A stretch of 64,000 bases of DNA, from positions 736,169 to 800,168 of the forward strand of contig NC_088297.1 of assembly GCF_032854445.1 (NCBI RefSeq). The letters are read 5' to 3'. A program made the translations under genes and the position numbers. Of the stretch, positions 33,691 through 63,288 are shown piece by piece. The stretch's first letter is position 1. Each line of letters starts with the position of its first letter. Source of the stretch: Liolophura sinensis (taxonomy: Eukaryota; Mollusca; Polyplacophora; Chitonida; Chitonidae). The notes beneath the pieces were generated by a model that ran no database searches, was not told the DNA's origin, and was given only the letters and a program-made list of their open reading frames with translations.

Positions 33691-33738
33691 TATATAGTTT
33701 TCTTTTCTAACTGCAGATCGAGATAAATCCGTAAGACA

Positions 33739-36700
33739 ATGGCCAATCGTGTAGAGAGGATACTTTGGTCTCGGAGGAACTTATCTCTGGAAGACTTCCT
33801 GGAGACTCATGAAAAGAACCTGCCGAAAATAATCATCCTCAAGCAAAGTTCACCAGCCTTAGGTGACTTACAGAAGGAGCAGGTAAACCACACACACACT
33901 TCACCAGCCTTAGGTGCCTTACAGAAGGACCAGTTAAAACAAACAAACTTCACCAGCCTTAGGAGCCTTACAGAAGGACCAGGTAAACCACACACACACT
34001 TCACCAGCCTTAGAAGCCTTACAGAAGGAGCAGGTAAACCACACACACACTTCACCAGTCTTAGATGCCTAACTGAAGGAGCAGGTAAACCACACGCTTC
34101 ATTAGCCTTAGGTACTTTACAGAAGGACCAGTTAAAACAAACAAACTTCACCAGCCTTAGGAGCCTTACAGAAGGAGCAGGTAAACCACACGCTTTATTA
34201 ACCTTTGGTACTTTACAGAAGGACCAGTTATAACAAACAAACTTCACCAGCCTTAGGAGGCTTACAGAAGGAGCAGGTAAACCACACGCTTCATTAGCCT
34301 TAGGTACTTTACAGAAGGACCAGTTAAAACAAACAAACTTCACCAGCCTTAGGAGGCTTACAGAAGGAGCAGGTAAACCACACGCTTCATTAGCCTTAGG
34401 TACTTTACAGAAGGACCAGTTATAACAAACAAACTTCACCAGCCTTAGGAGGCTTACAGAAGGACCAGGTGAAGCAAACAAACCTCACCAGCCTTAGGAG
34501 CCTTACTGAAGGTCCAGGTAATGCAAACAACCCTCACAAACCTTTGGTGCCTTACAAAAGGACCATGCAAAGCCTACATACCTCACCAGCTTTAGGAACC
34601 CTACAGAAGAAACAAGTTAAATAAACAAACCTCACCAGCCTTAGGTGTATTACAGAAAGACTAGGTAAAATTATTATTATTAGACCAAAGAAACCGATTA
34701 TTGTCTTCATCAACTGACCGGCAGACAGATCAGACATAATCCACAGATTTAGGGAAGGGCCAGAGCGCTAATAGTTAAATTGAAAATGCATATTTCAGGA
34801 AAAAGCCATGATTTGTATGTGTACTGTACAGCTAACTGGTACTAAGCTAAGGCCATGTTCCTTGAATGAAAAGGTTTTAGTACATTTTAAGTTAACTGAC
34901 ATCGAAAAAACAAACCTGTACTTCTTACATTATACCATATTCTCGTTAGTAAAGCAGTAAAAGAGATATGTATGTCGGAAAAGGCCAGTCAGTCCTCGGG
35001 CCAAATATCGGCCCATGGAGCATATGTCAAATGTCGATAATGGCCTGCATGCAGATCTATGGTTTCTTTGTGCATGTGGTGATCTTCGCGGCCTCCGTTG
35101 CCTCAGTGGTTAGCGTTCCAACGCGACGCCATGACACAGTCTCTAACCAATGCGGTCGCTGTGAGTTCAAGTCCAGATCTTGCTGGTTTCTGTTTGCTTG
35201 TACGTGGAAAGGTCAGCAAACAATCTGATGATGGATGGATGTGGGTTTTCCCCGGGCTCTGCCCGGTTTCCACCCACCATAATGCTAGCCGCCATCGTAT
35301 AAGTGACGTATAAGTGAAATAACAATCTAACAAAATCCTTTGTGCGAATTCAACTCTGGCAAGTCTACCAGACTAACTTGGAACAACATCTAGCTAATAA
35401 ATGTTTAGTCAGCTGACAATATTTAAGCCTATGGTTATAAAAAGGAATCTTGGCTATCTTTGAACATGTCTTGTATTTCTCCATTCAGATATTACGTGTT
35501 CACAAGGTGTGCAAGCAACAACGACTGACAGCCAAAAATTCCAAAAATGAGGTGTGGTCCATTCCTCTGGATTATCACATCAAAGTTCGGGTACTCCGTC
35601 AGGGCCAGTACTTGCCGGGTAAGTGAACTTCATTCCCCGGATTATCAAACCATACGCCGGATACTTTGTCAGGACGAGAACTGTCCTGGTAAGTGAGGCC
35701 CATTGCCCCGGATTATCAAATCAAAATCCGGATACTCCGTCAGGACGAGTACTGTCCTGGTGAGATCCATTCCGACGGACTATCAAATCAAAGTGCAGAT
35801 ACTCCGTCATAGTCAGAACTCTGCGAGTAAATCTGTCAGGGCGAGTATTTTCCGGGTAAGTGAGGCCCATTCCCCTGGATTATCAAATCATAGGCCGGAT
35901 ACTCCGTCAGGGCAAGTACTGTCCTGGTAAGTGAGGCCCATTGCCCCCGATTATCACATCAAAATTCGGATGCTCCGTCAGGACGAGTACTGTCCTGGTG
36001 AAGCCCATTCCCGTGGATTATCACAACATTGTCCGGATACGCCATCAGAGTGAGTACTGTCCTGGTGAGTGAGGCCCATTGCCTCGGATTATCACATCAA
36101 AATCCGGATACTCCGTCAGAGCGAGTACTGCCCTGGTAAGTGAGGTCCATTCCCCCGAATTATCACAACAAAATCCGGATACTGCGTCGGGCGAGTACTG
36201 TCCTGGTAAGTGAGGCCCATTCCCCTGGATTTCCACATCAAAGTTCAGATACTCTGTCAAGCCGAACATCGAACAATGAAAAAACAAAAATTCTTTCTCT
36301 CTCATTTTGCAGCCCAAAACATTGCTGATATCTCTGAGGCTTTACCTGTCAATGTTCGATTTGAAGAAGAATTCGATGGAAAATTTCATTTTGCGGGAGA
36401 AGTTACCAATGTGGAGCTTGGGCTGTTGACAATTGAATCCCTGTCTGAAGAAACGTATCTTCTAGGAAACTGTATTAATAAAGGTAAGCAGAGCAGAATT
36501 CTCCGGGTTGACTCGGCGCCCTGGACGCCCGATCTCTGTCTTAATATTATTGTGTTATTTATTTATTTGATTGGTGTTTTACGCCGTACTCAAGAATACT
36601 TCACTTATACGACGGCGGCCAGCATTATGGTGGGAGGAAACCGGGCAGAGCCCGGGGGAAACCCACGACCATCCGCAGGTTGTTGGAAGACCTTCCCACT

Positions 36701-39700
36701 CACGGCCGGAGAGGAAGCTGGACTTGAACTCACGGCGACCGCATTGGTGAGAGACTCCCGGGTCATTACGCTGGGCTAGCGCAATAACCAACTGAGCCAC
36801 GAAGCCCCCTATTATTTATTTCATTGAGGTGAACAACACACCATTTTTGAGTAGACCGTCTAAAAAAATTGCAATGAACATCACTGCATTAATTAAACCT
36901 AATTCTGCTTAAGCCGTCATCCCAGAGGGCGTGTAAATTGATACTTTTTAGGCATCTACATGAACAGTTAGAATATAATCCAAGCTGATGTAAATGAACA
37001 AAAGGTCGTTAAACTTTAGGCTTGTCACGTGAACGGTGACGAGAATGTGTGTATCACCTTTGGAAGCTCTGTCTTTAAATCTTTATGTTCAAAATCTGTA
37101 ACATTAAGAAAATAACTGCCACCAAAGTTCAAAATTGATCAGTTCATTTCCAAGATAACGAAATTGAGTTGGAGCATAAAAATGTATATGCGGTCGTTGT
37201 GAGTTCAGGAAGTCCAGCTCTTGCTGGCTTCCTCTTCGGCCGTACATGAGAGGGTCTGCCTGCAAACTGCGGCTGTCGTGGGTTTTCCCCGGGCTCTGTC
37301 CAGTTTCCTCCCACCATAATCCAACCACCGTCGTATAAGTGAAATATTCTTGTGTACGGCGTAAAACAGCAATCAAGTAAATAAATAAATAAACAGCGTA
37401 TGCACCTCTCTTCACATTTTTATTGAAACTATGCGAAGTGTATCTTCGCTTCAAAAGCTTTTATCAGGAAATTGTTGAAAGATGAAAGAACCCGGAGTGC
37501 CTAGAGTAAACCAGCGACCTTCACCAGATTCAGATGTCTAAACCTCACAAGCAAGGGACAGGTTTGAACCTGCTGCCTCATTGCTTATTGCGGTTAAGGT
37601 GGTCCGCCCGTCATGGCTGGAGAGAGTGCAGCTTTGGGGTCTCCTGCTGATAAATCTACACCATAACGACTATCACGGAGCAGTTTGATATCATTCACTG
37701 AAACAGAAAGATAAATGCAAGATTTAACTGAAAGAAATAAAGAAACAATTAAATACTGACGTTTTATAACCGTGGCATTTCATCTCTAACAATAGGTACG
37801 GTAGATGGTCGCGTGGTTGCCATCCCCACAAACTGTGACGTCATTGTGGGCGTTGCGGAGGGTTTTGGGCGTGATGAAGCCATCAAGAAGGATTGGTTGA
37901 CATTTCAGAACATCCTCGCCTCCGTCATAGAGGAGTTCAATATGGGTCACGTGGCCGGCTGTGCAGGTAAAGGCGGAACGAGATATAGTTTAGAGCATAC
38001 CTTTCTAAAATGTTTTAAAAGAAAAGTCCGCAAGAAAATGAAGTGAGCATCAAGAAAAAGGCCATTGAAAAGCATCCCTGAAAATGTGGTTAGGTCTGCT
38101 TATGTTTTAGATGTAACCTTCACTGAATTAAATAAAGGAAAATGTTCTAATTGTAAGGTGGACGTACGAACTGTGATACCAGTGGCAAGTTCTCTGACGT
38201 CACGTCTTGTTTTGTTCTTTATATTCATCTAAAGGCGATTATTTTGTGAACATTATTTAAGCAATATTTTACTTGGTATAATAAGAGTTATTCCAACACG
38301 AAAACCTGTGCTGTGGTGTTTGATTGAGGTTGTACACACAAGGTCTACTGTGTTTCCGATTATCAACCGTGCAACCCAGAGTAAACACCTCAGACGAATG
38401 GCAATTACCTACTTTCGTATTATAATGACGACGTTGTTCGCCCGCCATGGCTTTATTTCGCATATTAACCAGTTTAGAGGGACACTTCTTTGGACACACA
38501 CAGGCATCGGAAAGAATCTCGATTTCTTGAACAGAAGCATTGTTTAGTAGAAAGAAGGCAGTTCGGCTTCGTCAGATATATTCAGTAATGATGCACGTAT
38601 CATGCATGTAATCACATCAACCAAATTCAAAACTACTAGAGAGAAACACGGACTCCGAAGCTATCAGTTTAGATCGAACCCGATGACAAGTGAAATCACG
38701 ATGAAACATATCCGCATGTGACATCTGTCAGAATATGTGCAAATCAGGATTTGACTCCATCTTTGTACATATCTTACACAGGACAACAACCAACCCATTA
38801 AAATGACCCTCAAGGCACATAAGATGCAGATTACACCGAACTTTGTCCTAAATGGACACAAGACTGTCTTACATGACACTTGATACATATCAGAAACAGA
38901 AAGATATTGAAAGAATCAACTTGTTCATACTGTTTAACTTTGTCCTAAATGGACACAAGACTGTCTTACATGACACTTGATACATATCAGAAACAGAAAG
39001 ATATTGAAAGAATCAACTTGTTCATCCTGTTTTCTTAGTACATAATTAAGTCAATCATAAATACTCATGATATATTTTGTGTACATTTGCTGTTTTATAA
39101 TTATTACTTTGAGTTTTCACTGAAGTAGGATACATATTTTTAGATATGTAATATTGGGAATCGCTTAAATACGTTGATCCTGCGCCCTCTTTAATTTTTT
39201 TTTTTTAAATTTACAGAAATCAGGAAAATTTCCCAGTCCAAGCCGACCACTCCAGACCGTGTGTTGTTGTGTACCCCAGACCCAGATAAAATCATCTCTT
39301 ACCCACAGGTTACCCTGGATGAGAGGCTACCCCCTGAACCCCCACCCGTCCGGCCATCCAGGCCCAGGGTAAGGGATCTTAGCCAATCTGCATCCTCTTG
39401 TATCATTTTATCCGTTATATCATGTGGGGGGTTGGGGTGTGGGGCTTATATGGCCGAGGTGGTTAGCGTGCCAGCGCGGCTAAATGACCCAGGAGCTGCA
39501 GGCCACCTTCGGATAGTCTTGTGCTTTATAGAGCTCGGTTTCCTCCCACCATCCTGGGCTGGCCTCCATCGTATAAGTGGAACATTCTTGAGTACGGCAT
39601 AAAAGAACAATCAAATAAATAAATAAATAAATAAATTTATATCATATCGCGGAATTTGACATGGTCCTGCATGACTGCCGTCAAATTTTACAGGTGAACA

Positions 39701-42700
39701 GTTCTTGAGAACGGCGTTAAACAAAGTTCAATAAATCGTTGAGTGCTTTTCTATTTCAGACGTTTGAAAAGATCAATGAGAACCGCGACGTGGCATGGTC
39801 GACTGAACACTACACCCTCAAGGAGTTTTTTGACAAGTTCTCCCAAAATTTACCCCAGATTGTTGTCGTCACTTCCGGTTTCTACGGGCTGACAGATTTA
39901 GAGACTTTCGGTGTTGACGAAGTAAGTTTAAAGGAGAAAAAAAAAGTGAAAAAGACATAAATTTCAAATGGAAGTGTATTCAAAGTTATTTACAGATATG
40001 GTCTTGAATGTATTTTTCTCGATGTTTTCTTGAGAGCATATTTATGCCTCAATATGTCCACCGTACGTGGGAAGGTCTGCCACCAACCTGCGGATTGTCG
40101 TGGGTTTCCTCCTGGCTCTGCCCGGTTTTCACCCACCATAATGCTGACCGCCGTCGTATAAGTGAAATATTCTTGAGTATGGCGTAAAACACAAATCAGA
40201 CAAATAAATAAATAGAGATCAATATGTCTAATTAATGTTATGGTCTCAAATACCCACCATATTTAAACTATTTTAAATTATTTTTCACAGCCTTTCATGT
40301 AAGTTTTCACCGTATATGTTTATGTTTTTTTCCTCTTCTATCGGCACACATATCCAGTGACCGGCACACATGTTTGATCGGCATACATATCCAGCGACCG
40401 GCACACATGTTTGATCGGCACACATATCCAGTGACCGGCACACATGTTTGATTGGCATACATATCCAGTGACCGGCACACATGTTTGATCGGCACACATA
40501 TCCAGTGACTGACACACATGTTTGATCGGCACACATATCCAGTGACCTTATAATTACATTCTGTTATACATGTATGTACACTTAGCAGAGTTATCGGAAA
40601 GAACTTCTGTTCTGTGTCAGCAACAGAATAATGTCATATTTTTTTACTCATCAGCAGTGCATACATCTTTCACGGAATATTCCTAACATTGTTTTGCTGC
40701 AGAATTCGGATACATTTCTGACAAAGCTCTGTTTCAGAATTCTGTTACATTCCCGATGTTCTGTTGCAGAATTCTATTACATTCCTGATAATGTTCTGTT
40801 GCAGAATTCTGTTACATTCCTGAATGTTTTGTTGCAGAATTCTGTTATATTCCTGATGTTCCGTTGCAGAAATCTGTTATATTCCTGAAAATGTTCTGTT
40901 GCAGGATTCTGTTAGATTCCTGAATGTTTTGTTGCAGAATTCTGATATATTCCTGATAATGTTCTGTTGCAGAATTCTGTTATATTCCTGATAATGTTCT
41001 GTTGCAGAATTCTGTTATATTCCTGATAATGTTCTGTTGCAGAATTCTGTTATATTCCTGATAATGTTCTGCTGCAGAATTTTGTTATATTCCTGATAAT
41101 GTTCTGTTGCAGTTGATTCTACTCTTGCTTCATTAAATAGAACAGACAGATTTCGTGACCTATTGATTATAGAGCTTCGCCTCGATGTCGGGAGACCAGG
41201 TATCAAAGACCGAAGATTTAAAAACTGGAACATCTACTTTTTGCAGCCTCGCTTGGCGTTCAGCATTGTGAGGTTAGAAAGCAGGACAGCTTGGCCCGGT
41301 GTCAGTATAGTGTAACTGCACGGGTGGAATGTCATGTCTGGTGTCTTCGGCATGATACTTCAGTGTCAACCAGTCCTGTCTCATCGCTCTAATATCTCAG
41401 TGCTGAACGCCAATTTAGGGAGCAGTAAGTATCATTTTTAATGTCTTTGGTATGAGCCAACCCGGGTTTGATCCCAAGACTTCGAGGCGAGCCGACCGCT
41501 CTAAACATTAGGATTAGGTCTAAATAATCTGTTAATTTTAACAGAAAGTGATGGTAGAATGCATTGTTATTGCAGAAGATTCGTTTGTAAAATAGAGCAC
41601 ACATATACTATTATTTCGACATAAAGGTTGTATAAGACTAGCAGAATGTTATGTTGAATATGACACAGTCTTATGTTATCATCAGGCAAAACAAGCATGC
41701 ATCACTCAGACAACAGGCTTTCTGTTAATATCCTTTTTTTTCTTTGAGTGTACCCCTCACTATTCTTATTTCCTTGTCAGATTGTCCGCATCAAGCAATA
41801 CGCCCGCCAGAAAAGGGTGATAGCCATGGATCCCACGGAGCAATATCTGAGCATCCCACTCACATACCCAGTCAAAATGGAGATCCTCAAGGAACATGGC
41901 AAAGGTACAAAACTAAACCTCTCCTATTCGTCTTATTTATTTATACATTTGATCTTTGTTTTACATTGATCTTTGTTTTACATTGATCTTGGTTTTACAT
42001 TTGATCTTTGTTTTTACATTTGATCTTTGTTTTACATTGATCTTTGTTTTACATTTGATCTTTGTTTTACATTTGATCTTTGTTTTACATTGATCTTTGT
42101 TTTACATTTGATCTTTGTTTTACATTGATCTTTGTTTTACATTTGATCTTTGTTTTACATTTGATCTTTGTTTTACATTGATCTTTGTTTTACATTTGAT
42201 CTTTGTTTTACATTTGATCTTTACATTTTGATTATCGACAACGTGTACACTAGCATGGTACACTATTCCGATAATGATTATATCCATTCGCTTTTATATC
42301 CAATCACGACTGTCTCTGAAGGTGTCTTATTACTTAGATACTAGATGTCCCCTGAGGGTCCAAACATTGCTACAAGGCAATTTGTAATTAAAAAAAAAGC
42401 AATTTGTAATAATTAGAGCCTTTTTGCATTTGTTTTGCAGAGTGTTTTGTGGTAATACCGTATTCCTTGAAAAAAACTTTTTCTAAAATTTTGTTCATAC
42501 TCGACCAAGCCTGAACGGGGAGATCGGGTCATTGAGAATAATAACAAAACTTATCTTCAAAAATATATTTGTTGAAAATTGTGATAGCCCTATTACAAGC
42601 TGCGTGTCAGATGTTTCCGAAATTTGTAAATTTGTGTTGGCGTTAAAAACCTTTTATAATTTACCTATAGTATATGTCTTAACTTTCATCATTTTTTTCC

Positions 42701-44917
42701 TCCTTAGTCTCCATACCAATATCCTTGGAAAGCATCATCAACAATTACAGCCTACCGATCAGAGTGAGGTTTTCAAGGAAGGATTCTGGGAATTTTGTCT
42801 CCCAAGCAGATTCGTCGTCTTACGCGATGAGGGAGCTCGAGCTCCAGGAGTGTTACAGCGAAACGTACTACCTTGGCAACAGCCTGTGTGCAGGTAAACG
42901 ATCCCTATTATATATTTATTTATTTATTTGGTGTTTTACGCCGTACTCAAGAATATTTCACTTATACGACGGCGGCCAGCATTATGGTGGGAGGATACCG
43001 GGCACAGTCCAGGGGAAACCCACGATCATCACATCAGTACGCTGCTGGCAGACCTTCCCACGTACGGCCGGAGATAGAGGCCAGCATGGGCTGGACTTAA
43101 ACTCACAGCGACCGCATTGGTGGGAGGCTCCTGGGTCTTAACGCTGCGCTAGCGCGCCGCTCCCTACTATGATTTAACTGAATTTCACCGATGTGGTCGC
43201 GGTGAGTTCAAGTCCAGCTCATGTTGGCTTTCCAGCCGAATATGCGAAGCCCTGCCAGCAAACCGCGGATGGTCGTAGGTTTCCTCCGGGTTTTGCCCGC
43301 TTTCCTCCCACCATAATGTTAGCTGCAGTCGTATATATCAAATATTCTTGAGTACGGTGTAATACAGCAATGAAATAAATAAATAAATACAAAAACGTCA
43401 TGATGTTAGGTGCATGTAACAGGCAAGATGCTTTAACGCTGAGAATTAAAACTATTAATAGAGGGATGTGCTTGAAACATTATTGAACACACATGGAAAT
43501 GAATTTACAATACCTTTGCAGGTGAAATGAACCCGAAAGTTACCATAATGCCTGTGTACATCGATATTAGCGTGGCGGTGGCTCAGGGCTGGAAAAAGAA
43601 ACCCGCCGAAGAATGGGAGAAATACTTACTGACCTTGGAAGAGAAATCGGCTGATGTTAATTACGATATACCAGCCATCGATAGGAGTAAGTATACAGCG
43701 AGTGAAATGAGGAAACAATCACAGAGGATTCTTCCCAGCTCGCGTTATAAGTTTTTTTCCTTCTGCGATGTTAATGTTTTTCTTCACGGCTGGCCGTGTT
43801 TGGATTTTTTGTTTACATGCTGGACTGAGATTTAAAGTTGCTCTCACTCTGTGGTGACGTTTTTGTCCATCGTATTTTCCAGACGTCACCGTTTTATTTT
43901 CTTTATTGTACGTGTTTGCCTGTCCAATTTTCCAGACATCGCCATTCTGTTTTCTTTACTGTACGTTTTTGTCTGCCTTATTTTCCAGACATCGCCGTGT
44001 ATTCGCCTGGGCAGGTTAACGCCGGTGAAAACATCTACGAGTACATCATCCCCAGTGACTACATCTCAATATTTGAGGAAGAAAAACCCCTAACATCTCC
44101 AAAGTCGCCGATGCCACACCCTTCAAATGTCAAGACCAAGGCTAAACCAGGTCCCAAAGCCAACTACGCGGCATTGGTCCCTCAACCGTCTGTCAAGAAC
44201 ACTTATGTCTCGCTGTCTCAAAAACCATCTGTCAGACCCCTTCCGGAAACACCGGGCGATGTTCCCAAGGTCAAGATAAGTCCCAAGATTTCGACGCTGC
44301 CAAAATCTTTTCCAACATTTTTTCCTCTAGAAGAGCCTGTTCCTTCCAAAACAACTTCTCCAGTTTCTCCGAACCCCACTTCTGCAGCTTCTCCCACTTC
44401 GCCCAAACCCGTATCTGAAACTGAGCTACGGAAACACAAGGCAAGTCTGAAAGGTATCAAGGTCTTACCAATGCCTTCCTCTGCAAAAGATACAACGCCC
44501 CGCACCAGAGTGAATGACTCAACTTTGGTGAATGATAAACGCCAATATTGCCCACACCAATACGCCAATAGCATTCGTGGGGGAGATATGAGCTTAAAAA
44601 CCCAAACGTGCACTGGAGCGCAGACAGGCCGACCGGGGTCCGTACCAGATGAATACTCCAAGATCTCGATCAAGAAAATTCAAGACATTCCACATTCCAT
44701 CTCCTATATCACTGTCGAGGAACTCTGCGACTGCTTAAAGCTGTTGCACCTGAACCAGTACGTGGACAGTTTCCGGAACCTCAACATAGACGGAAATTTG
44801 CTAATGGACCTAACCGTTGATGACTTGCAAAACGACCCGAATTTCCACATGTCAATCACAGAAGCTAAAATGCTGGTGCGATTTGCAAGAAACGGCTGGA
44901 GACCAAAGCATAGTTAG
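33739..44917 (+). CDS. THEMIS/GAREM-family protein: CABIT-CABIT-SAM, ten coding exons
   Basis: Coding exons are 33739-33882, 35489-35618, 36313-36483, 37796-37966, 39217-39368, 39760-39921, 41781-41904, 42708-42893, 43522-43686 and 43989-44917; all have AG acceptors and GT donors, phases agree, and the sum is 2334 nt (777 aa). An acceptor at 33717 and an in-frame stop before ATG 33739 indicate an upstream 5' UTR exon. CABIT 1 spans about residues 8-205 (LSLEDFLETHEKNLPKIIIL to GHVAGCAG). A linker follows with PPEPPPVRPSRPR. CABIT 2 spans about 265-490 (YTLKEFFDKFSQNLPQIVVV onward), then a Pro/Ser-rich tail with RPLPETP, a class I SH3-ligand pattern, and tyrosines in YDIP and YEYI contexts. 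The SAM domain is about residues 708-777, ending NGWRPKHS as in GAREM. Vertebrate THEMIS has two CABITs and GAREM one CABIT plus SAM; both act as GRB2/SHP2-linked adaptors. A cytoplasmic signalling adaptor is inferred. No frameshift. Confidence 0.88.
33836..34665 (+). repeat. 48-bp minisatellite grown from the end of coding exon 1, donor included
   Basis: The first copy is coding: the last codons of exon 1 (SSPALGDLQKEQ) with donor CAG/GTAAAC at 33883. About 16-17 more copies follow, each with CACCAGCC(TTAG), CTTACAGAAGGA and either a CAGGTAAAC donor-like end (type A) or CAGTTA(A/T)AAC (type B). From 34093 on, A and B alternate as a 96-bp dimer (CACGCTT at 34093, 34189, 34285, 34381). Confidence 0.92.
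35089..35316 (+). repeat. SINE-A in intron 1 of the CABIT gene
   Basis: Head GCCTCCGTTGCCTCAGTGG, B-box-like GAGTTCAAGTCC, body to GTATAAGTGAAATAAC. The 3' tail is replaced by a short duplication of GTATAAGTGA. Confidence 0.9.
35553..36265 (+). repeat. About 70-bp tandem array grown from the end of coding exon 2, donor included
   Basis: The first copy is the 3' end of exon 2 (coding IPLDYHIKVRVLRQGQYLPG) with its donor GG/GTAAGT at 35619. About nine or ten copies follow with a period near 70 bp, some shortened. Each has GGATTATCA, CCGGATACTCCGTCAG, GAGTACTGTCCTG and a donor-like GTAAGTGAGG or GTGAG. Donor-like ends occur near 35687, 35760, 35853, 35926, 35997, 36064, 36135 and 36205, all before the acceptor of exon 3 at 36313. 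Confidence 0.92.
36553..36807 (-). repeat. SINE-A in intron 3 of the CABIT gene
   Basis: Full length, from TTATTTATTTATTTGATTGG to CTGAGCCACGAAGCCCCC. Close to the family consensus, so relatively young. Confidence 0.95.
37190..37397 (+). repeat. SINE-A in intron 3, head missing
   Basis: TGCGGTCGTTGTGAGTTCAG through GTGAAATATTCTTGTGTACG to AAGTAAATAAATAAATAAAC. Confidence 0.9.
38839..39032. repeat. 97-bp tandem duplication, nearly identical
   Basis: AACTTTGTCCTAAATGGACA begins at 38839 and again at 38936. The two 97-bp copies differ at only one or two bases near their ends (TTCATACTGTTT against TTCATCCTGTTT). It lies in intron 4 of the CABIT gene. Confidence 0.93.
39440..39640 (+). repeat. 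SINE-A, internally deleted
   Basis: ATGGCCGAGGTGGTTAGCGT head, then a jump to TTTCCTCCCACCATCCTGGG and GTGGAACATTCTTGAGTACG, ending in AATAAATAAATAAATAAATT. The B-box region is lost. Confidence 0.8.
40058..40218 (+). repeat. SINE-A, 3' part
   Basis: CCGTACGTGGGAAGGTCTGC to CAGACAAATAAATAAATAGA. In intron 6 of the CABIT gene. Confidence 0.88.
40343..40545. repeat. 37-bp minisatellite, about 5.5 copies
   Basis: Unit CGGCACACATATCCAGTGAC plus CGGCACACATGTTTGAT; copies at exact 37-base spacing (GTTTGAT at 40372, 40409 and so on). The unit itself contains two related CGGCACACAT halves. Confidence 0.93.
40697..41113 (+). repeat. 35-bp minisatellite with acceptor-like motif, about 12 copies
   Basis: Unit CTGTTGCAGAATTCTGTTAT followed by ATTCCTGATAATGTT. 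Each copy carries TGTTCTGTTGCAG, which resembles a 3' splice site on the gene's strand. It lies in intron 6, upstream of the true acceptor at 41780. No coding exon follows the array. Confidence 0.92.
41935..42232. repeat. 17/18-bp minisatellite derived from a SINE-A tail
   Basis: ACATTTGATCTTTGTTTT (18 bp) and a 17-bp variant alternate about 16 times. The array begins with TTATTTATTTATACATTTGA, matching the reverse complement of the SINE-A 3' end (TTATTTATTTGATTGGTGTTTTAC). Confidence 0.9.
42905..43160 (-). repeat. SINE-A in intron 8 of the CABIT gene, near full-length
   Basis: TATTTATTTATTTATTTGGT through GGCGGCCAGCATTATGGTGG to CGCTGCGCTAGCGCGCCG. The outermost head bases are missing. Confidence 0.93.
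43192..43393 (+). repeat. SINE-A in intron 8, head missing
   Basis: GATGTGGTCGCGGTGAGTTC through GTATATATCAAATATTCTTG to GAAATAAATAAATAAATACA. It stands head to head with the copy just upstream, so the pair can form a hairpin. Confidence 0.9.
43870..44000 (+). repeat. Triplicated acceptor of the terminal CABIT-gene exon, 53-bp unit
   Basis: TTTTCCAGACATCGCC-like acceptor plus exon start occurs three times at exact 53-base spacing; the first exon base would be 43883, 43936 or 43989. Only 43989 keeps the frame into the SAM domain. Confidence 0.92.
43989..44917 (+). other. Terminal exon: Pro-rich tail and SAM domain
   Basis: 929 nt coding 309 aa. It opens with NIAVYSPGQ, then ENIYEYIIPSD, a long region rich in P, S, T and K (PSKTTSPVSPNPTSAASPTS), and ends with a 70-aa SAM domain: VEELCDCLKLLHLNQYVDSF, LNIDGNLLMDLTVDDL and MLVRFARNGWRPKHS. 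Confidence 0.85.
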
Positions 44918-44996
44918 ATTTAAAAAGTACCGGCGGAAATGCTGATGTGATTCTCCAGAAAGGACTGGAGACATGTTTTAGCCTGTACTTTGACTA

Positions 44997-45049
<53 letters not shown>

Positions 45050-45174
45050 TTTGGGTCTGTTAATTTGTTTTACAGGCTAAAATGCTGATGTGATTTGCCA
45101 GAAAGGACTCCAGACCCAAAACGCAATGTACTGACGAAAATGTTGATGTTATGTACAGCAAACGGCTGGATAAT
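44864..45174 (+). repeat. End of the SAM-coding sequence repeated three times in the 3' UTR
   Basis: The coding stretch at 44864-44909 (GCTAAAATGCTGGTGCGATT to GGCTGGAGACC) reappears at about 44935-44973, 45076-45117 (almost unbroken GCTAAAATGCTGATGTGATT, then CCAGAAAGGACTCCAGACC) and 45135-45174 (AAAATGTTGATGTTATG, GCAAACGGCTGGATAATG). Copies are non-coding and diverged. Confidence 0.85.
44999..45043. repeat. TA dinucleotide microsatellite
   Basis: Uninterrupted TA repeat of about 22 units, between the second and third copies of the SAM-end repeat, in the 3' flank of the CABIT gene. Confidence 0.97.
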
Positions 45175-45213
45175 GAAACTAGTTTCAGCTTCTGTTTCAG
45201 TGCATTGAGAACC

Positions 45214-45575
45214 GGCCCGGATAGCACAGTTGGTAGAGCGTCCGATTCGGGACCGGTAGATCCAGGATCAATCCTTGGTCGAGTCACACCTAAGACTTTA
45301 AAAGAGGAAGTTGTAACTTCCTCGCTTGGCGTTCAGCATAAAGGGGACAGTGCAACGACTGGTTGACCCGTATCAGTATAATGGCTCGGGCGGGGCGGCT
45401 TACTTGCCTTCGGTAAGTCGTCTCAGTGATGCAGCACTAAATAAAAGAGCGGTGGAAATCCGTCCTGCAACAAGGAGGCACATTATACGTGCATGCACCC
45501 TAATGATTCCTTCGTCGTCATATGACTGAAAAATTGTTGAGTACGACGTTAAACCCCAAGCACTCACTCACTCAG
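45214..45575 (+). repeat. SINE-B, full-length copy with target-site duplication
   Basis: Head GGCCCGGATAGCACAGTTGG, end CCAAGCACTCACTCACTC. CAGTGCATTGA occurs just before the head (45199 region) and just after the tail, a clear target-site duplication. This is the cleanest SINE-B of the window. Confidence 0.96.
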
Positions 45576-45738
45576 TGCATTGACAAGAATCTGCTGTAAA
45601 TGTACAAATTTCGTTCTTCAAAAGGGCACACGTCCTCTGCTAATTGCAAACGTTGAAATAGGCACATCTTGTGTTTTTATACAAAATCTGTCACCGTTCT
45701 TGACTAGGTTAAATGTATAGACCTAGACCTAATTTTGG

Positions 45739-45996: not shown

Positions 45997-45999
45997 TTA

Positions 46000-47070: not shown

Positions 47071-47079
47071 TAATTCCGA

Positions 47080-47305: not shown

Positions 47306-47374
47306 ATCCTAGCGATTCCTGGAAATGCAAAATGTTATCTTTTTGTTAATTTTCGCTTGTTTATCTTTTGTTGT

Positions 47375-55700: not shown

Positions 55701-58082
55701 GTTCACACAGGAAGTGGACAGACGGGACTTCCAGTGGGTGGTTACAAATACTGCACTTAGATGCCTGGAAAATCTTGGCTCTAAAATGAGGAAAGCATAT
55801 AAGTGTTACAGTATGTTATTAGATGCAGTATGAATTCATGGTATCATGCTATGTTAATGAAACATTAAAGGGACATACTGCCAATGTTGAAAAAATTGTG
55901 CTGTTATTTTAGAGCTCATCTGCATAAAGTTGAGACTTCCAGAAGCTACTAACACGTATCTGACTCTGAGACAATGATCGAATGTTTAGTTCTATCCGGG
56001 GTTTCCCTTCTACCATCAAATCACTCAAAAAGCTATTTAAAAAGTCAGACTTTTTTTACTCAGTTACCTCCCCTTGTTGTCTAGACGACGGGAGATGTTC
56101 AGTGAACTTGAAATGTCATATATGGCACTGCATGTAATTATGCGATCTACTGTGTAACTGCATTGGCATTTACAAGTACTTTATAAAACATTATCAACAG
56201 AAAGGAAGATCGTATTTGATTTACTGGACTTCTAATTTGCTTTCAATCTATCGTACTGTTTACATGTGCGATCACAGGCCAGGATAGCACAGTTGGTAGA
56301 GCGTCCGCTTCGGGAGCGGTAGATCCAGGATCAATCCTGGGTCGAGTCATACCTAAGACTTTAAAAGAGGAAGTTGTGGCTTCCTCGCTTGGCGTTCAGC
56401 ATGGAGGAGATAGTGCATCGACTGGTTGACCCGTAACAGTATAATGGCTCGGGCAGGGCGGCTTACTTACCCTTACGCAGCACTAAATAAAAGAGCGGTG
56501 GAAATCCGTTCTGCAAGAACCCTAATGATTCCTTCGTCGTCACATGACTGAAAAATTGTTGAGCACGACGTTAAACCCCAAGCACGCACTCACTCACTCA
56601 CAGGTGTGATCCACAATCGAATGTTGCATTATGGGGATCTTTGCACGGCCTCATTTGCATGTTGTCTCATTGGGCAGGCAGTTTAAACCGGTTACAGATT
56701 TTTCCTTTAAATTCTTTTAATTGAAATTTGTGGAAAATATAGGCCCATGGGGTTTAGTTAGGAGTCAAATGCCACTCATTTCTGTTTTTAGCTGAATTTC
56801 TTTCGACAGTATGTCCCTTACCTCTCTAAAACAAACTATTAGTTTAATGTAATGTTATGAAAGGACAATTCATGTATATGCTAACAGAAATCCCGACACA
56901 TTTTCATTATCTTTCATTTTAAATCTTCTTGTTATGAATACACCTATGACAATGTAAAGGATATTTTAGAACGGGGTTGCTGTTGATCAAAACTATATAT
57001 TTATTTATTTATTTGGTGTTTTACGCTGTACTCAAGAATATTTCACTTATACGACGGCGGTCAGCATTATGGTGGGTGGAAACCGGGCAGAGCCCAGGGG
57101 AAACCCACGACCATACGCAGGTCATCATCTTTCAAACAGTGACATTTATGGAAACAGATTGCCAACTGCCAGTTTATTTATTTATTTATTTATTTATTTG
57201 ATTGGTGTTTTATGCCGTACTCAAGAATATTTCACTTATACGACAGCGGCCAGCATTATGGTGGGAGGAAACCGGGGGAAATCCGCTGGTTACTGGCAGA
57301 CCTTCCCACATACCACCAAGATGAAGCCAGCATGAGGTCCACTTCAAATCACAGCGACCGCATTGGTGAGAGGCTCCTGGGTCATTACGCTGCGCTAGCG
57401 CACTAACCAACTGAGCCATGCAGGCCCCTATTATTTATTTCATTGAGGTGTCTAATGCTATACACAGACATCCCCATGTACTGCCTGAGAGGAAGCCAGC
57501 ATGAGCTGTGATCAAAACTAGAAATGCATCCTAAAGCAGGACTGATGAAATTCCTATAGTCCTATTCCAGAGACGTGTGCTTACGAAGTTTTAAGCTCCT
57601 CAATCTGTGCTCTTGTCCTCTCGGTATCCTCGCGATATTGCCGAATCAATCGCTCATCTTCTGATATCTGGTCATTCTCCATCTGTAGCCTTCGGATGAT
57701 ATAATCCTACAGAAAAAAACAAACAAACAGTCAGACATCTGCTTGTCACCCGCCTGTTTCACAATTAACAATGAGTTTAAACTGCACTGCAATGGCTGGG
57801 TGCTTTGAACACGATAATTCCTTCACACTGTTTATTCAAGCAAATTTTCATGGTATTATTCTGAGAAGTCCTAAAATTGTCAAAACAAACCTGAACCAAT
57901 GTAGTTTTGTGTCGAAAATCAAATTTAAAAGGTCTGCCATAAACGTGCGGAGGGTTGTGGGTTTCCCCTGGGCTTTGCCCAGTTTCTTCCCGCCATAATG
58001 CTGGCTGCTGTCACATAAGTGAAATATTCTTCAGTAAGGAATACAACACCAACCTAAACATAAATAAATAAATAAATAAATA

Positions 58083-58117
<35 letters not shown>

Positions 58118-61100
58118 TTTAAAAGGTGTGCACGCCACATAGAAGTTTGCTCTTTCATGTGAGAAAATGTTGGGGAGTTAAGGGAGAGGATTTGCTCCAC
58201 AATGGCCATGTGATTCTCAGCCAGGTGAATTTGTATCAAGCTACATGTATCTAAAAACATACCAAAATCCAGAGATCAAGAGCAAGACAATATTTTCTCG
58301 CTCTCTGAGTACAAACTTTTACTAGGGTACATTTTACTTGGGGACCCACATGGCCAAGCGCTTAGCATGCTAGCGCAGTACAATAACTAAGGAGCATCTC
58401 ACCAATGTCCAACTCATGCAGAGTGTCTATCCCTATTCTATGTGGGAAGGTCTGTCAGCAACTTGCAGATGGTTGTGGGTTTCCCCGGGTTCTGCCTGGT
58501 TTTCTTCTATCATAATGGTGGCTGCCGTCATGCATCTAATTAACACCCTGACTCATGCGCCAGCTTAACCAGCAAAAGCTGGATTTACTTATATACTTAT
58601 CTAATTGGTGTTTTACGCTGTACTTAAGAATATATCACTTATATGACGGCAGTCATCATTAAGATGGAAAGCTGGATTACTACTTATTTGGAGAGACGAA
58701 ATAGCTGCCTAAGCAATTTGAATGTATTTTTGCATACTCCTTACAGCGCATACGTCCTCTACATTCACTGCCACAAATTGCAAATTTTGTACAGAAATCC
58801 TGAACTACGCCGAGGTCACTGGCGTGGTGGTGATGAGGCAAGAAGAGGTGCCAGAAAACACAAAACCTCCGTCTCAGCCTTTGGTTATAATAACACAATA
58901 TACACATGCATTTTATTCATCCAAAGTGTGTACAACATGTGTACACATTTATTAAAGAATGTTGATAAAACAGTTTTGTGCAAAGACACCAGTGGGATGT
59001 TAAGCCTAAACATGCCTTCCTGCATCGCACTGGTTCCAAAGGTCAAGTTTGTCTAGTGGTGGCAGTGTTGTATAGTGAACTAGACAGCGATGCATACGCT
59101 GTCAAGAGTATGGTATTTTTATAGTTATTATAAAGCTGGTCAGGTTTTTGGGCAGGGGAAACCGGAATGCCTGTTATACACCACTGACAATATCCAGCTA
59201 AATGTACTTGTGCATGGGAAACCAGAATGCCTGTAGTGCACCATCGACATTATCCAGCTAGATGTACCTGGGCAGGGGAAACCGGAATGCCTTTAGTACA
59301 CCACCGACAATATCCAGATAGATGTACTTGGGCAGGGAAAACCAGAATGCCTATAGTACACTACCAACATTATCAAGCTAGATGTACCTGACAATTTACC
59401 TCTGAACTTAAACAAAACCTTGCCAAATGCCGAGGCAACAAATCCCCTTACCTTGACCACGGATAGTGTGGCTGTAGAGTTATGAGCCAGAGTCTGAATA
59501 ACCAACAAGGGAGGTAATAAATTCTTCTTGTCAATATTTGTGAAAGGTTAAGGATATCACTGGCAAATATATTCTTACAAAATAATTTATGGACAACTGT
59601 ATATTCATAGTTTATGATCACAACTATACAGCAGCAAATGGGACCATGAGCAGCTAGAAACAAACAAAAACTGACCTTCCAAGGTGTTAAACTGCCACGT
59701 CATGACAGTCAACATACATATACACGAAGCTATATATTAAATACTGTACTTCCTCTGAAAATTAACTCAAAAATATGCACTTCTAGAAGCAAATAAAGGT
59801 AACACAATGTTACATTTAAGTTGAAAATTAAATTTTCAAGTAGGATATCATCCTACCATTTCTAATATCAATAGAACTCTTAGAATCACGCAAAATGAGT
59901 GACTCAGTCGCATAGGGTTAGTCAGCTACGTGTCCACCCATAGAATCATAGGTTTAGTCAGCTACCTGTCCACCCATAGAATCACAGGGTTAGTCAGCTA
60001 CCTGTCCACCCATAGAATCTTAGGGTTAGTCAGCTACCTGTCCACCCTTAGAATCACTGGGTTAGTCAGCTACCTGTCCACCCTTAGAATCACAGGGTTA
60101 GTCAGCTACCTGTCCACCCATAGAATCACTGGGTTAGTCAGCTACCTGTCCATCCATAGAATCATAGGGTTAGTCAGCTACCTGTCCACCCATAGAATCA
60201 CAGGGTTAGTCAGCTACCTGTCCACCCATAGAATCATAGGGTTAATCAGCTACCTGTCCATCCATAGAATCATAGGGTTAGTCAGCTACCTGTCCACCCT
60301 TAGAATCATAGGGTTAGTCAGCTACCTGTTCACCCATAGAATCATAGGGTTAGTCAGCTACCTGTCCACCCACAGAATCATAGGGTTAGTCAGCTACGTG
60401 TCCACCCATAGAATCATAGGGTTAGTCAGCTACGTGTCCACCCATAGAATCATAGGGTTAGTCAGCTACCTGTCCACCCTTAGAATCATAGGGTTAGTCA
60501 GCTACCTGTCCACCCATAGAATCACAGGGTTAGTCAGCTACCTGTCCACCCATAGGATCATAGGGTTAGTCAGCTACCTGTCCACCCATAGAATCATAGG
60601 GTTAGTCAGCTACCTGTCCACCCATAGAATCATAGGGTTAGTCAGCTACCTGTCCACCCTTAGAATCACTGGGTTGGTCAGCTACCTGTTCACCCATAGA
60701 ATCATAGGGTTAGTCAGCTACCTTTCCACCCATAGAATCATAGGTTTAGTCAGCTACCTGTCCACCCATAGAATCACTAGGTTAGTCAGCTACCTGTCCA
60801 CCCATAGAATCATAGGGTTAGTCAGCTACCTGTCCACCCTTAGAATCACTGGGTTAGTCAGCTACCTGTCCACCCCTTAGAATCATAGGGTTAGTCAGCT
60901 ACCTGTCCACCCTTAGAATCATAGGGTTAGTCAGCTACCTGTCCACCCATAGAATCATAGGGTTAGTCAGCTACCTGTCCACCCATAGGATCATAGGGTT
61001 AGTCAGCTACCTGTCCACCCATAGAATCATAGGGTTAGTCAGCTACCTGTCCACCCTTAGAATCATAGGGTTAGTCAGCTACCTGTCCACCCTTAGAATC

Positions 61101-63288
61101 ACTGGGTTGGTCAGCTACCTGTTCACCCATAGAATCATAGGGTTAGTCAGCTACCTGTCCACCCATAGAATCATAGGTTTAGTCAGCTACCTGTCCACCC
61201 TTAGAATCACTGGGTTAGTCAGCTACCTGTCCACCCATAGAATCATAGGGTTAGTCAGCTACCTGTCCACCCTTAGAATCACTGGGTTAGTCAGCTACCT
61301 GTCCACCCTTAGAATCATAGGGTTAGTCAGCTACCTGTCCACCCATAGAATCAAAGGGTTAGTCAGCTACCTGTCAACCCTTAGAATCACTGGATTAGTC
61401 AGCTACGTGTCCATCCATAGTCAGTGAGGTCAGAACTATATATTTATTTATTTATTTGATTGGTGTTTTACGCTGTACTCAACTTTGGGGTCAAACACAG
61501 CCTATAATCACACATATTCCATCCAAAGCAATTTCAGTACTAACATTCCAATATTACATATTTTCTATGCAGGCATCTGGCCTACCACTGGGAACTGACA
61601 AAGGATATGAGTAAGGACTTCCATCAGTTGAGTCTTACAGTTGTCTTCTTTCCGAGCAAAGTACGCCAAGGCCTGTACCCACAGATTTGGATCTTGTGAT
61701 CTGAAGACATACACATGTACAGTATATGTGAAACAATGAACTCAATCTCCAAATAGTTTTCACTTGTCACTGCTTGTATTTCTCCTATTATTTATTTGAC
61801 TTATTTATTTATTTGATTGGTGTTTTACGCCGTACTCAAGAATATTTCACTTATACAACGGCGCGCAGCATTATGGTTGGAGGAAACCAGGCAGAGCCCG
61901 GATGAAACCCACCACCATCTGCAGGTTGCTGGCAGACCTTCTACTTATGGCTGGAGAGGAAGCCAGCATGAGCTGGACTTGAACTCACAGTGACCGCATT
62001 GGTGAGAGGCTCCTGGGTCATTACACTGCGCTAGCACGCTAACTGAGCCATTTATTTGATTGAGGTGTCCAATGCCATACACAAGAATTTTTAACTTACA
62101 TATGTATACACTGACAGTCCGATATATGGGTGGAGGAAGTTTCGAAGTCATTCATTGCACTTTGCCAGGTACTAACAGCAAGAGCTGAATTCGAGCATGT
62201 GACCTCACTGGTAGACAGCCTAAGAGTGAGCGAGTGATTGGGGTTTAACGTCGTACTTAACAATATTTCAGTCATATGATGACGAAGGAATTCTAGGAGT
62301 GCATGTAATGTGCCTCCCTGTTGCAGGATGGATTTTCACCGCTCTTTTATCTAGTGCTGCTTCACTGAGAAGACTTACCAAAGGCAAGTAAGGTGGATGA
62401 ATCAATTAGAATCAAGAAAAATGTCTCTCTTGAAAAATTCTAAACTTTAGGTGAAATACGGTAATAATTTAATAACGTGTGGTAAATCTACAACGTGCGG
62501 TAAATCTACAACGTGCGGTAAATCTACAACGTGCGGTAAATCTACAACGTGTGGTAAATCTACGTGCTGTAAACCCACGTGTGGTAAATCTACAACGTGC
62601 TGTAAATCTACAACGTGTGGTAAATCTACAACGTGTTGTAAATCTACAGCATGTGGAAAATCTACAACGTGTGGTAAATCTACAGCATGTGGAAAATCTA
62701 CAACGTGTGGTAAATCTACAACGTGTTGTAAATCTACAACGTGTGGTAAATCTACAACGTGTTGTAAATCTACAACGTGTGGTAAATCTACAACGTGCTG
62801 TAAATCTACAACGTGCGGTAAATCTACAACGTGTGGTAAATCTACAACATGCTGTAAATCTACAACGTGTGGTAAATCTACAACGTGTGGTAAATCTACA
62901 ACCCTGCTTCTGTACTCACATGCTGACACATACCTGAAGCTATAATTTGTTTTGGTAACATTTGTGTGTGTTCATATTTAACAGGAAACATACATAACAC
63001 ATGTATCACTAACTGTGACACAATGTGTGACATTATCTGTGACACAATCTGTGACATTAACTGTGACACAATGTCCACTTACCCGAAGCATTTACAAGCA
63101 TCAATAACATACATAACACATGTATCATTAACTGTGACATTAAATGTGACACAATGTGTGACATTAACTGTGACACAATCTGTGACATTAACTGTGACAC
63201 AATCTCCACTCACCCGAAGCGTTTACAAGCGTCAATAACATGAGAATGTTCATCATGTTCCATATGGTAGCGCAGAATCTGCTGATAC
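49707..63288 (-). CDS. VPS11: VPS11, C-terminal nine exons (5' part outside window)
   Basis: From 5' to 3' on the minus strand the exons are 63288-63214, 61700-61586, 59522-59452, 57706-57585, 55780-55682, 54637-54578, 51936-51870, 51093-51028 and 49793-49707. The joined product aligns throughout with the end of VPS11: YHMEHDEHSHVIDACKRFG, QDPNLWVQALAYFARKEDNC, LLPPLLVIQTLAHNSTATLS, a coiled coil beginning DYIIRRLQMENDQISEDERL, the RING (KIFQASKCSIC to CPACMPENR), IMDFIRAQEQSKDLHEFFHN, and DGFSVVAEYFGRGVFNK before a 28-aa tail ending NPFS. VPS11 is a core subunit of the HOPS and CORVET tethering complexes acting on endosomes and lysosomes. Donor and acceptor sites and phases fit everywhere. 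The weak spot is the 61586/59522 junction, where the acceptor is poor and the model has about five extra residues. No frameshift seen. Confidence 0.92.
50234..50255. repeat. TA microsatellite
   Basis: About ten TA units. Confidence 0.9.
50280..50535 (-). repeat. SINE-A, full-length copy in a VPS11 intron
   Basis: TTTATTTATTTCATTGGTGT through GACGACCAGCATTATGGTGG to GCGCGCTAACCAACTGAGC. Confidence 0.95.
50665..50816. repeat. 17-bp minisatellite, about 9 copies
   Basis: Unit CCATGGGTTCAATGCTT, with ATGTTT and TCCTT variants. Short open frames here are periodicity artefacts. Confidence 0.93.
51150..51305 (-). repeat. SINE-A, partial copy
   Basis: TTATTTATTTATCCCACTGA, CAGCCAGCATTATGGTGGGA, ACCATCTGCAGGTTGCTCGC. 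The tRNA-like half is missing. Confidence 0.85.
51412..51622 (-). repeat. SINE-A, internally deleted copy
   Basis: TTTATTTATTTATTAGATTG, a deletion of the mid body, then CGGAAGAAACCCACGACCAT to CAACTGAGCCCCGGAGGCCC. Confidence 0.92.
52005..52456. repeat. 63-bp tandem array, about 7 copies
   Basis: Unit ATGACAGATAGCATGTCAAC, ATCGTACCACAAAGTAGGAT, GGCTGAGCCACAGTGACTGC, ATC. A period of 63 (21 codons) gives open frames on both strands that are not genes. In a VPS11 intron. Confidence 0.95.
52452..52564. repeat. 36-bp tandem array, three copies
   Basis: GACGTCAGCTGTATTGTGAC followed by CATATGGTTTACACCT, three times, directly abutting the 63-bp array. Confidence 0.93.
52976..54130. repeat. 33-bp minisatellite, about 35 copies
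   Basis: Unit AAACTGAGGTAAATTGACAA plus GAGGCCAGATTTC. The 341-codon minus-strand frame (repeating LSLKSG-LSIYLSLKS) is an artefact of a period of 33 without stop codons. On the minus strand each unit reads TTTACCTCAG/T, resembling a splice acceptor. In the VPS11 intron between exons 54578 and 51936. Confidence 0.96.
54693..54915 (-). repeat. SINE-A, degenerate copy
   Basis: TATTTATTTTACTGGTACCT, TTCAAGAATATTTTATTTAA, GAGCTGGACTTGAACTCTCA and the CTCGACCACAAAGCC head occur in family order. Confidence 0.78.
55156..55642. mobile_element. MITE-like element with about 22-bp terminal inverted repeats
   Basis: Left end TTAAAGGAGAAGAAAACTTA; the right end in reverse complement reads TTAAGGAGAAGAAAATTTAA. 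Element of about 485 bp without coding content, ending 40 bases from the RING exon donor at 55682. Confidence 0.78.
55866..56821. mobile_element. DNA-transposon remnant with terminal inverted repeats, split by a SINE-B
   Basis: Left end TAAAGGGACATACTGCCAAT; right end in reverse complement GTAAGGGACATACTGTCGAA. Without the nested SINE-B (56277-56602) it is about 630 bp. No transposase frame. Confidence 0.75.
56277..56602 (+). repeat. SINE-B nested in a DNA-transposon remnant
   Basis: Head GGCCAGGATAGCACAGTTGG, B-box-like GGATCAATCCTGG, end CCAAGCACGCACTCACTC. Two internal deletions: after GGCTTACTTACC and after CTGCAAGAACCC. Confidence 0.93.
56998..57125 (-). repeat. SINE-A, 3' part
   Basis: TTTATTTATTTATTTGGTGT through CGGTCAGCATTATGGTGGGT to ACCCACGACCATACGCAGGT. 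Confidence 0.9.
57175..57428 (-). repeat. SINE-A, full-length copy
   Basis: TTTATTTATTTATTTGATTG through AGCGGCCAGCATTATGGTGG to AACTGAGCCATGCAGGCCCC. The second SINE-A in the same orientation within 430 bases. Confidence 0.94.
57935..58118 (+). repeat. SINE-A 3' part with an expanded tail microsatellite
   Basis: GCCATAAACGTGCGGAGGGT through CATAATGCTGGCTGCTGTCA, then six AAAT units that change into nine AATC units (58080-58115). Confidence 0.9.
58345..58545 (+). repeat. SINE-A, degenerate copy
   Basis: ACCCACATGGCCAAGCGCTT head, TATGTGGGAAGGTCTGTCAG, TGGTTGTGGGTTTCCCCGGG, ATCATAATGGTGGCTGCCGT. Confidence 0.78.
58585..58665 (-). repeat. SINE-A fragment, 3' end
   Basis: TTATCTAATTGGTGTTTTAC and GACGGCAGTCATCATTA; only the terminal 80 bases. 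Confidence 0.75.
58730..59070. repeat. Unclassified dispersed repeat, copy 2
   Basis: Colinear with 24955-25312 over about 340 bases in the same orientation (see that entry for landmarks). A 137-codon plus-strand frame overlapping this copy is not open in the other one, so it is not taken as a gene. Confidence 0.75.
59150..59392. repeat. About 61-bp tandem array, four copies
   Basis: Unit GGGCAGGGGAAACCGGAATG, CCTGTAGTACACCACCGACA, TTATCCAGCTAGATGTACCT, G. On the minus strand it lies just downstream of the VPS11 exon at 59452. Confidence 0.9.
59915..61425. repeat. 36-bp minisatellite, about 41 copies
   Basis: Unit CATAGAATCATAGGGTTAGT plus CAGCTACCTGTCCACC (36 bp, 12 codons). It keeps long frames open on the plus strand (316 codons of a YLSTHRIIGLVS pattern). 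Variants CTTAGAATCACTGGG and ATCATAGG alternate and suggest higher-order copying. One extra base near 60875 breaks the frame. In a VPS11 intron. Confidence 0.97.
61440..61485 (-). repeat. SINE-A fragment, tail end
   Basis: TTTATTTATTTATTTGATTG followed by GTGTTTTACGCTGTACTCAA; it ends there. Confidence 0.8.
61797..62051 (-). repeat. SINE-A, near full-length copy
   Basis: TGACTTATTTATTTATTTGA through ACGGCGCGCAGCATTATGGT to GCGCTAGCACGCTAACTGAG. Confidence 0.94.
62226..62398 (-). repeat. SINE-B, 3' part
   Basis: GAGTGAGCGAGTGATTGGGG, TTTAACGTCGTACTTAACAA, CAGTCATATGATGACGAAGG, TGTGCCTCCCTGTTGCAGGA, TTTCACCGCTCTTTTATC: the reverse complement of the SINE-B 3' half. The only minus-strand SINE-B seen. 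Confidence 0.93.
62476..62902. repeat. 18-bp minisatellite, about 24 copies
   Basis: Unit ACGTGTGGTAAATCTACA with CGG, CTG and TTG variants. Open in all three plus frames and on the minus strand because a unit of 18 has no stops; the Cys-rich TTCGKS product is not a real protein. In a VPS11 intron. Confidence 0.97.
62988..63245. repeat. Tandem repeat that includes a copy of a VPS11 exon edge
   Basis: ACATACATAACACATGTATC occurs at about 62989 and 63108; TGTGACATTAACTGTGACAC is repeated between. The real exon end and donor (ACTCACCCGAAGC to GTCAATAACAT, 63208-63242) is matched by ACTTACCCGAAGC to ATCAATAACAT at 63077-63111, with four differences. Confidence 0.88.

What the first reader, a model, noticed from the sequence alone, without database searches (positions are those of the whole stretch)
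33717..63288. Recurrent exon-edge tandem amplification: a possible genome-level mechanism
Five exon boundaries in two genes seeded tandem repeats that include the splice site or stop-proximal coding end, with unit sizes of 48, about 70, 53, irregular, and about 120 bp. Chance placement of this many arrays exactly over exon borders seems unlikely. Candidate causes are replication slippage or break repair at R-loop- or spliceosome-associated sites, or a process copying spliced-edge RNA back. I know of no named mechanism that predicts this, and this is inference from one window.
Basis: inference. Interest (0 to 1): 0.85.

Follow-up and report, generated by a model that had tools for sequence, protein, structure and literature searches.

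The report
Minisatellites that swallow exon edges
In this minisatellite-rich genome, short tandem duplications fall on exon edges about as often as on equally GC-rich intron DNA, leaving about one sampled edge in twenty beside spare copies of its own splice site; no special edge-copying mechanism is needed to explain it.

Summary
Observation: partly confirmed. Four edge-spanning repeats are real (4 of 24 tested edges of two genes, CABIT-SAM and VPS11).

The pattern recurs: of 500 exon edges from five Pfam families, 24 (4.8%) carry local copies spanning the splice site.

It is not shown to be edge-targeted. Against plain intron points the excess is 1.96-fold (P 0.002). But array seeding rises steeply with GC, and edges are GC-richer than introns. 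Against GC-matched intron, 24 observed meets 20.7 expected (ratio 1.16, 95% interval 0.74-1.72). The junction has no fixed place in the unit (KS p 0.74).

Best reading: blind tandem duplication, tolerated where the exon-attached splice site keeps working; copies diverge like neutral DNA. Still striking: of 139 spare splice sites, 123 keep GT/AG, 82 score at least as well as the original, and 2 would keep an open frame, a natural test of how splicing picks one of many similar sites.

The parts
33717..33882 (+). CABIT-SAM gene, exon 1 (start codon within; donor CAG|GTAAAC)
   Evidence: continuous spliced frame; Pfam CABIT
33840..34670 (+). 48/96-bp array whose unit holds up to the last 43 bp of exon 1 plus the donor; 14 spanning copies
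   Evidence: TRF; edge comparison
35489..35618 (+). CABIT-SAM exon 2 (donor CGG|GTAAGT)
35552..36259 (+). 71-bp array (two TRF stretches): last ~67 bp of exon 2 plus GTAAGT; 8 spanning and 2 exon-only copies
   Evidence: TRF
36313..36483 (+). CABIT-SAM exon 3, no edge copies
42708..42893 (+). CABIT-SAM exon 4, no edge copies
43522..43686 (+). CABIT-SAM exon 5, no edge copies
43874..43996 (+). 53-bp array spanning the exon 6 acceptor (about 10 bp of exon per unit)
   Evidence: TRF
43989..44917 (+). CABIT-SAM exon 6 with SAM domain and stop codon
63214..63288 (-). VPS11 exon whose donor side is duplicated
   Evidence: continuous frame; Pfam PF23356
63006..63241 (-). two-copy duplication, offset 131 bp, 28 bp of exon + donor + 76 bp of intron, 93% identical
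59452..59537 (-). VPS11 exon; its donor is not duplicated
59148..59390 (-). 60/120-bp array wholly inside the intron, about 60 bp past the donor: not an exon-edge array
   Evidence: TRF; no edge copy

Best explanation
The arrays are ordinary minisatellites seeded by blind short tandem duplications in a genome where minisatellites cover 13% of the window and 21% of sampled gene bodies. Seeds are found mostly in DNA of moderate or high GC, which includes exon borders. A seed wholly inside coding sequence is removed by selection. A seed that spans an edge is tolerated because the copy attached to the exon keeps the splice site and reading frame; the further copies join the intron, drift as neutral DNA, and can multiply. 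Shown: recurrence, a rate that fits GC-matched intron, no register with the splice site, neutral-like divergence of copies. Inferred: the duplication step itself, removal of wholly coding arrays by selection, and use of the exon-attached splice site.
For: Array coverage 12.8% of the window and 21.1% of the myosin regions. Edge copies at 10 of 184, 10 of 250 and 4 of 66 edges in three samples. GC-matched expectation 20.7 against 24 observed of 500. Exonic share of the unit even in 23 arrays (KS p 0.74); unit length modulo 3 spread 5, 7, 11 (p 0.30). Copy-to-original mismatch 0.077, 0.078, 0.118 at codon positions 1, 2, 3; 0.113 on the intron side; 0.071 at GT/AG: third positions match intron and the others lie about a third lower, as expected if only the exon-attached copy is under selection. 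Of 217 exon midpoints, none is covered by an array inside the exon; 3 are reached by edge arrays. In the three window edge arrays that TRF finds, adjacent copies match at 76-84%, which assembly stutter would not produce.
Against: Against plain intron points the edges are in excess: 20 against 9.1 (P 0.001; 0.002 averaged over a bootstrap), and 24 against 12.2 in all three samples (P 0.002); only GC matching, tried last, removes it. GC may be a proxy for something tied to exons, and control points inside arrays carry the GC of the array itself. Array boundaries are about twice as dense within 60 bp of an edge as at 60-300 bp (P 0.015); that comparison was not GC-matched. The window itself is somewhat rich (4 of 24).
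Confidence: 0.8

Rival explanations
1. Exon edges are preferred seeding sites (R-loops, U1 or spliceosome-associated breaks, replication-transcription conflict), raising tandem duplication there above composition-matched DNA.
For: About twofold excess over plain intron, in the same direction in each of three samples; denser array boundaries within 60 bp of edges on both sides.
Against: GC matching leaves a ratio of 1.16, 95% interval 0.74-1.72. No register with the junction. Donors and acceptors do not differ clearly (13 of 210 against 7 of 224 in the first two samples, p 0.17; 2 of 33 each in the third).
Confidence: 0.1
2. The extra splice sites are selected for, giving splicing redundancy or regulated alternative transcripts.
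For: 123 of 139 copies keep the GT or AG and 82 of 139 score at least as well as the original.
Against: Only 2 of 139 would keep the frame without a stop. The copies' GT/AG mismatch (0.071) is close to that at codon positions 1 and 2 (0.077, 0.078), as for neutral loss. Unit lengths are not preferentially multiples of three (5 of 23).
Confidence: 0.05
3. The introns themselves were born from tandem duplication of exon segments (the AGGT model).
For: Exon-end sequence repeats into the intron, and published cases exist (PMC4974935 passages).
Against: In the window only one splice site of each of the four introns lies in the repeat; the partner site shows no spanning copy. No relative was available to show intron absence.
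Confidence: 0.03
4. Assembly or consensus artefact.
For: Tandem arrays are hard to assemble; no reads were available.
Against: Adjacent copies match at only 76-84% in the three TRF-detected window edge arrays, and the same pattern appears at 24 sampled edges on nine contigs.
Confidence: 0.02

Closest known systems
Internal tandem repeats at exon-intron boundaries of human segmental-duplication genes (PMC2812944; passages read)
   Same: Minisatellite units overlap an exon-intron boundary and can supply splice sites.
   Different: There reported in recently duplicated human genes, with repeat-number variation and transcript evidence; here about 5% of sampled edges in conserved genes of another eukaryote, with no transcript data.
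IFI6/6-16 minisatellite with multiple splice donors (Turri et al. 1995; title seen only in the reference list of PMC4526556; content recalled)
   Same: A tandem array at an exon end repeats the splice donor.
   Different: A single human gene; here many genes, with unit lengths mostly about 31-140 bp.
[quoted passage not shown] passages read)
   Same: Tandem duplication of DNA holding a splice site or exon edge.
   Different: There a new intron results; here, in the window cases, only one of the intron's two splice sites lies in the repeat.

Membership tests
Minisatellite at an exon-intron boundary | Tandem copies of a unit of 10 bp or more | tested here: met
   TRF for three of the four window cases; the VPS11 case is a two-copy duplication found by blastn
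Minisatellite at an exon-intron boundary | The repeat unit spans the splice junction | tested here: met
   4 of 24 window edges; 24 of 500 sampled edges
Minisatellite at an exon-intron boundary | Copy number varies between individuals or paralogues | not testable with these tools
   one assembly, no reads, no related eukaryote genome
Minisatellite at an exon-intron boundary | Alternative use of the repeated splice sites | not testable with these tools
   no RNA data
Intron gained by tandem duplication (AGGT model) | Both splice sites of the intron come from the duplicated segment | tested here: not met
   partner splice sites of the four window introns show no spanning copy; not tested for the sampled genes
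Intron gained by tandem duplication (AGGT model) | Intron absent from relatives | not testable with these tools
   no related eukaryote genome held
   24 against 20.7 GC-matched; but 24 against 12.2 unmatched
   KS p 0.74 for 23 arrays; boundary density within 8 bp of junctions 0.41 per kb against 0.38 at 60-300 bp

The most novel reading that the evidence does not exclude
In this lineage splicing reliably picks the exon-attached site by position out of up to some thirty near-identical, often equally strong neighbours. At acceptor arrays that is the last, most downstream AG, contrary to a simple first-AG rule, and it is done at roughly one exon edge in twenty. This would imply an unusually strict exon-definition rule, or heavy clearance of mis-spliced transcripts, that lets the genome carry so many minisatellites.
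Probability: 0.15. Interest if true: 0.65.

Novelty: new member of a known kind. Interest (0 to 1): 0.4.

Why it matters
It replaces a proposed new mechanism with a measured null: tandem duplication here is not seen to distinguish exon edges from equally GC-rich intron DNA. The by-product is useful. If the 4.8% rate of the five sampled families held genome-wide (an extrapolation), thousands of exon edges would carry several near-identical splice sites side by side, a ready natural experiment on splice-site choice that RNA reads could settle. It also suggests that gene prediction in such genomes may add false exon extensions at these arrays.

Tried and rejected
Rejected: (1) edge-targeted amplification, on GC matching, lack of register and no clear donor/acceptor bias. 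(2) TE dilution as the cause of the unmatched excess: masking 16-mers shared by four or more loci changed little (9.3 expected, ratio 2.16). (3) Better detection of old arrays at constrained exons: requiring 85% or 90% identity left ratios of 2.40 and 2.33. (4) Counting expanded arrays as available length: correcting this lowered the two-sample ratio to 1.91. (5) Reading the 59148-59390 array as an exon-edge array. (6) The L001 repeats of whole myosin exons (offsets 441 to 1087 bp) look like ordinary alternative exons; these edges stayed in the denominator but, with a weak hit 910 bp away at another L001 edge, fall outside the 300-bp rule and were not counted as positive. An earlier control without the 300-bp limit gave 2.8% and 2.2% per point in the first two samples, that is about 10.8 expected.

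Weak rows kept in the count: L007 exon 5 (8 bp of exon, 70-74% identical), L117 donor at 1191 (one copy 279 bp away), L124 donor (edge placement uncertain). Without L007 the two-sample P against the length-corrected unmatched control is 0.011 instead of 0.005.

Limits: edges were set by splice-site scores, frame and Pfam matches, not RNA; a few are probably misplaced, and 24 of 274 edges in the second sample and 4 of 70 in the third could not be placed. The myosin sample holds 64 of the 81 listed matches, from clusters I chose. The second sample took matches without stops and of 105 bp or more down three lists to a cut I chose (137 of 284 listed). The third took 35 of 58 by the same rule, leaving out one 1,134-bp match. 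GC matching was the last of several controls, devised after seeing the excess; GC was taken from 80 bp round each point, which inside an array is the array's own GC. The uniformity test used unit and exon lengths that I entered by hand (19 of 20 sample arrays plus 4 window arrays), and the detection rule (8 bp of exon, 4 bp of intron) cuts off the extremes. Pooled mismatch rates are dominated by arrays with many copies; averaged per array they are 0.052 (GT/AG), 0.089 (exon side) and 0.129 (intron side). Boundary density uses the first two samples; divergence and copy counts use these plus the window arrays; none of the three uses the third sample.

Full report
What was checked. The window is C3:736169-800168 of a 609-Mb, 632-contig genome held as G000. 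It looks to me like a mollusc or other lophotrochozoan from its SINE-like elements, which is recall and untested. Tandem Repeats Finder gives 42 rows; arrays of period 10 bp or more cover 12.8% of the window.

Genes. Joining exons at canonical sites gives a continuous 574-aa frame on the plus strand with CABIT (PF12736) and SAM domains. On the minus strand six exons join into a continuous frame that matches the VPS11 Pfam family PF23356 and a PDB chain named PEP5. Both frames use the copy of each repeated edge that is attached to its exon; of the 24 further copies at the four window edges none would keep an open frame. One VPS11 intron is joined at an AT...AA pair, with a U12-like ATATCCTT start and TCCTTAAC near its end (the motif names are recalled).

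Edge test. Each of 24 edges (11 CABIT-SAM, 13 VPS11) was compared by blastn with the same strand within 2.5 kb. Four edges have copies spanning the junction: CABIT-SAM exon 1 donor, exon 2 donor, exon 6 acceptor, and one VPS11 donor. The array at 59148-59390 is intronic. A further VPS11 exon near 51.9 kb was seen but not put through the test, nor were the other genes of the window.

Genome samples. Exons were taken from Pfam matches in the same genome: myosin head (13 regions, 92 exons, 184 edges), then kinesin, AAA_6 and HECT (137 exons, 250 edges placed), then SNF2 (35 exons, 66 edges placed). With one criterion (at least 8 bp of exon and 4 bp of intron in a same-strand copy, the nearest within 300 bp), 10 of 184, 10 of 250 and 4 of 66 edges are positive: 24 of 500, or 4.8%, on nine contigs. 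The effect is therefore not confined to this window.

Null model. An array can include an exon edge only if its founding unit did, so intron points were weighted by one over the number of copies found. Plain intron points give 9.1 expected for the first 434 edges against 20 (P 0.001, or 0.002 averaged over a bootstrap of loci). Correcting for length added by expansion gives 10.4 (ratio 1.91, P 0.005). With the third sample, 12.2 are expected against 24 (ratio 1.96, 95% interval 1.26-2.92, P 0.002). Masking shared repeats and restricting to young copies does not remove the excess. Matching on GC does: the intron seed rate climbs from 0.5% per point below 30% GC to 7.4% at 46-50% GC (5.3% above 50%), edges average 41.6% GC against 37.3% for control points, and the matched expectation is 20.7 against 24 (ratio 1.16, interval 0.74-1.72, P 0.26). 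This matching was devised after seeing the excess and should be repeated genome-wide.

Register. If splicing machinery or RNA copying set the unit, its ends should keep a fixed distance to the junction. The exonic share of the unit is spread from 0.14 to 0.94 (23 arrays, KS p 0.74; 19 sample arrays alone p 0.54). In the first two samples array boundaries within 8 bp of a junction run at 0.41 per kb, against 0.38 at 60-300 bp; within 60 bp on the intron side they run at 0.73 and in the last or first 30 exon bases at 0.80. The edge itself is thus not clearly denser than the intron beside it; the higher density near exons was not GC-matched.

State of the copies. Over 24 arrays (20 sample, 4 window), copies differ from the exon-attached original by 0.077, 0.078 and 0.118 at codon positions 1, 2 and 3, 0.113 on the intron side and 0.071 at the GT or AG (pooled). 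That is what drifting copies of a constrained original would give. Of 139 copies, 123 keep the dinucleotide, 82 score as high as the original or higher by a simple splice-site score, and 2 would keep an open frame if used. Of 217 exon midpoints none is covered by an array within the exon; 3 are reached by edge arrays, in line with removal of wholly coding arrays.

How it most likely works. Short tandem duplications arise all over the genome, found mostly where GC is about 40% or more. Where one covers an exon edge, the exon-attached unit still provides the edge, the remaining units become intron, and the array may grow. Which splice site is used was not shown; RNA is needed.

Literature. Passages of PMC2812944 report repeats at exon-intron boundaries in human duplicated genes. 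Passages of PMC4974935 describe intron gain by tandem duplication. Turri 1995 and Zhuo 2007 were seen only as titles in reference lists. A paper on intronic minisatellites and alternative splicing in C. elegans (PMC4039745) was seen only as a listing. In eight searches I saw no listing about the genome-wide frequency of edge-spanning minisatellites in an invertebrate; four papers were opened, the other listed ones were not.

Noticed in passing
window 59538-61608 (minus strand, VPS11 intron): A likely U12-type intron: starts ATATCCTTT, TCCTTAAC close to the end, and the frame was joined with an unusual AT...AA pair. The class is recalled, not tested.
   Followed up: partly
window 59903-61427: A 36-bp unit array of about 42 copies (59911-61420) is open on the plus strand as two long frames (325 and 189 aa); the weak Pfam matches of the first look like repeat artefacts.
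   Followed up: no
sampled introns (L001-L149): Minisatellite seeding depends steeply on local GC, eleven- to sixteenfold between below 30-34% and 46-50% GC. The cause is unknown.
   Followed up: partly
L001 5296-6493: Three tandem versions of one myosin-head exon (and, at 3168-3716, two of a neighbouring exon), probably alternative exons.
   Followed up: no
window 3480-3851: A 55-bp repeat array (3480-3651) abuts a 200-base run of N (3652-3851), a gap or a withheld stretch.
   Followed up: no
window, e.g. 36545-36810, 42910-43170, 61800-62050: Several copies of a dispersed SINE-like element, seen by eye (name recalled, not tested); ARAGORN finds no tRNA gene in the window.
   Followed up: no
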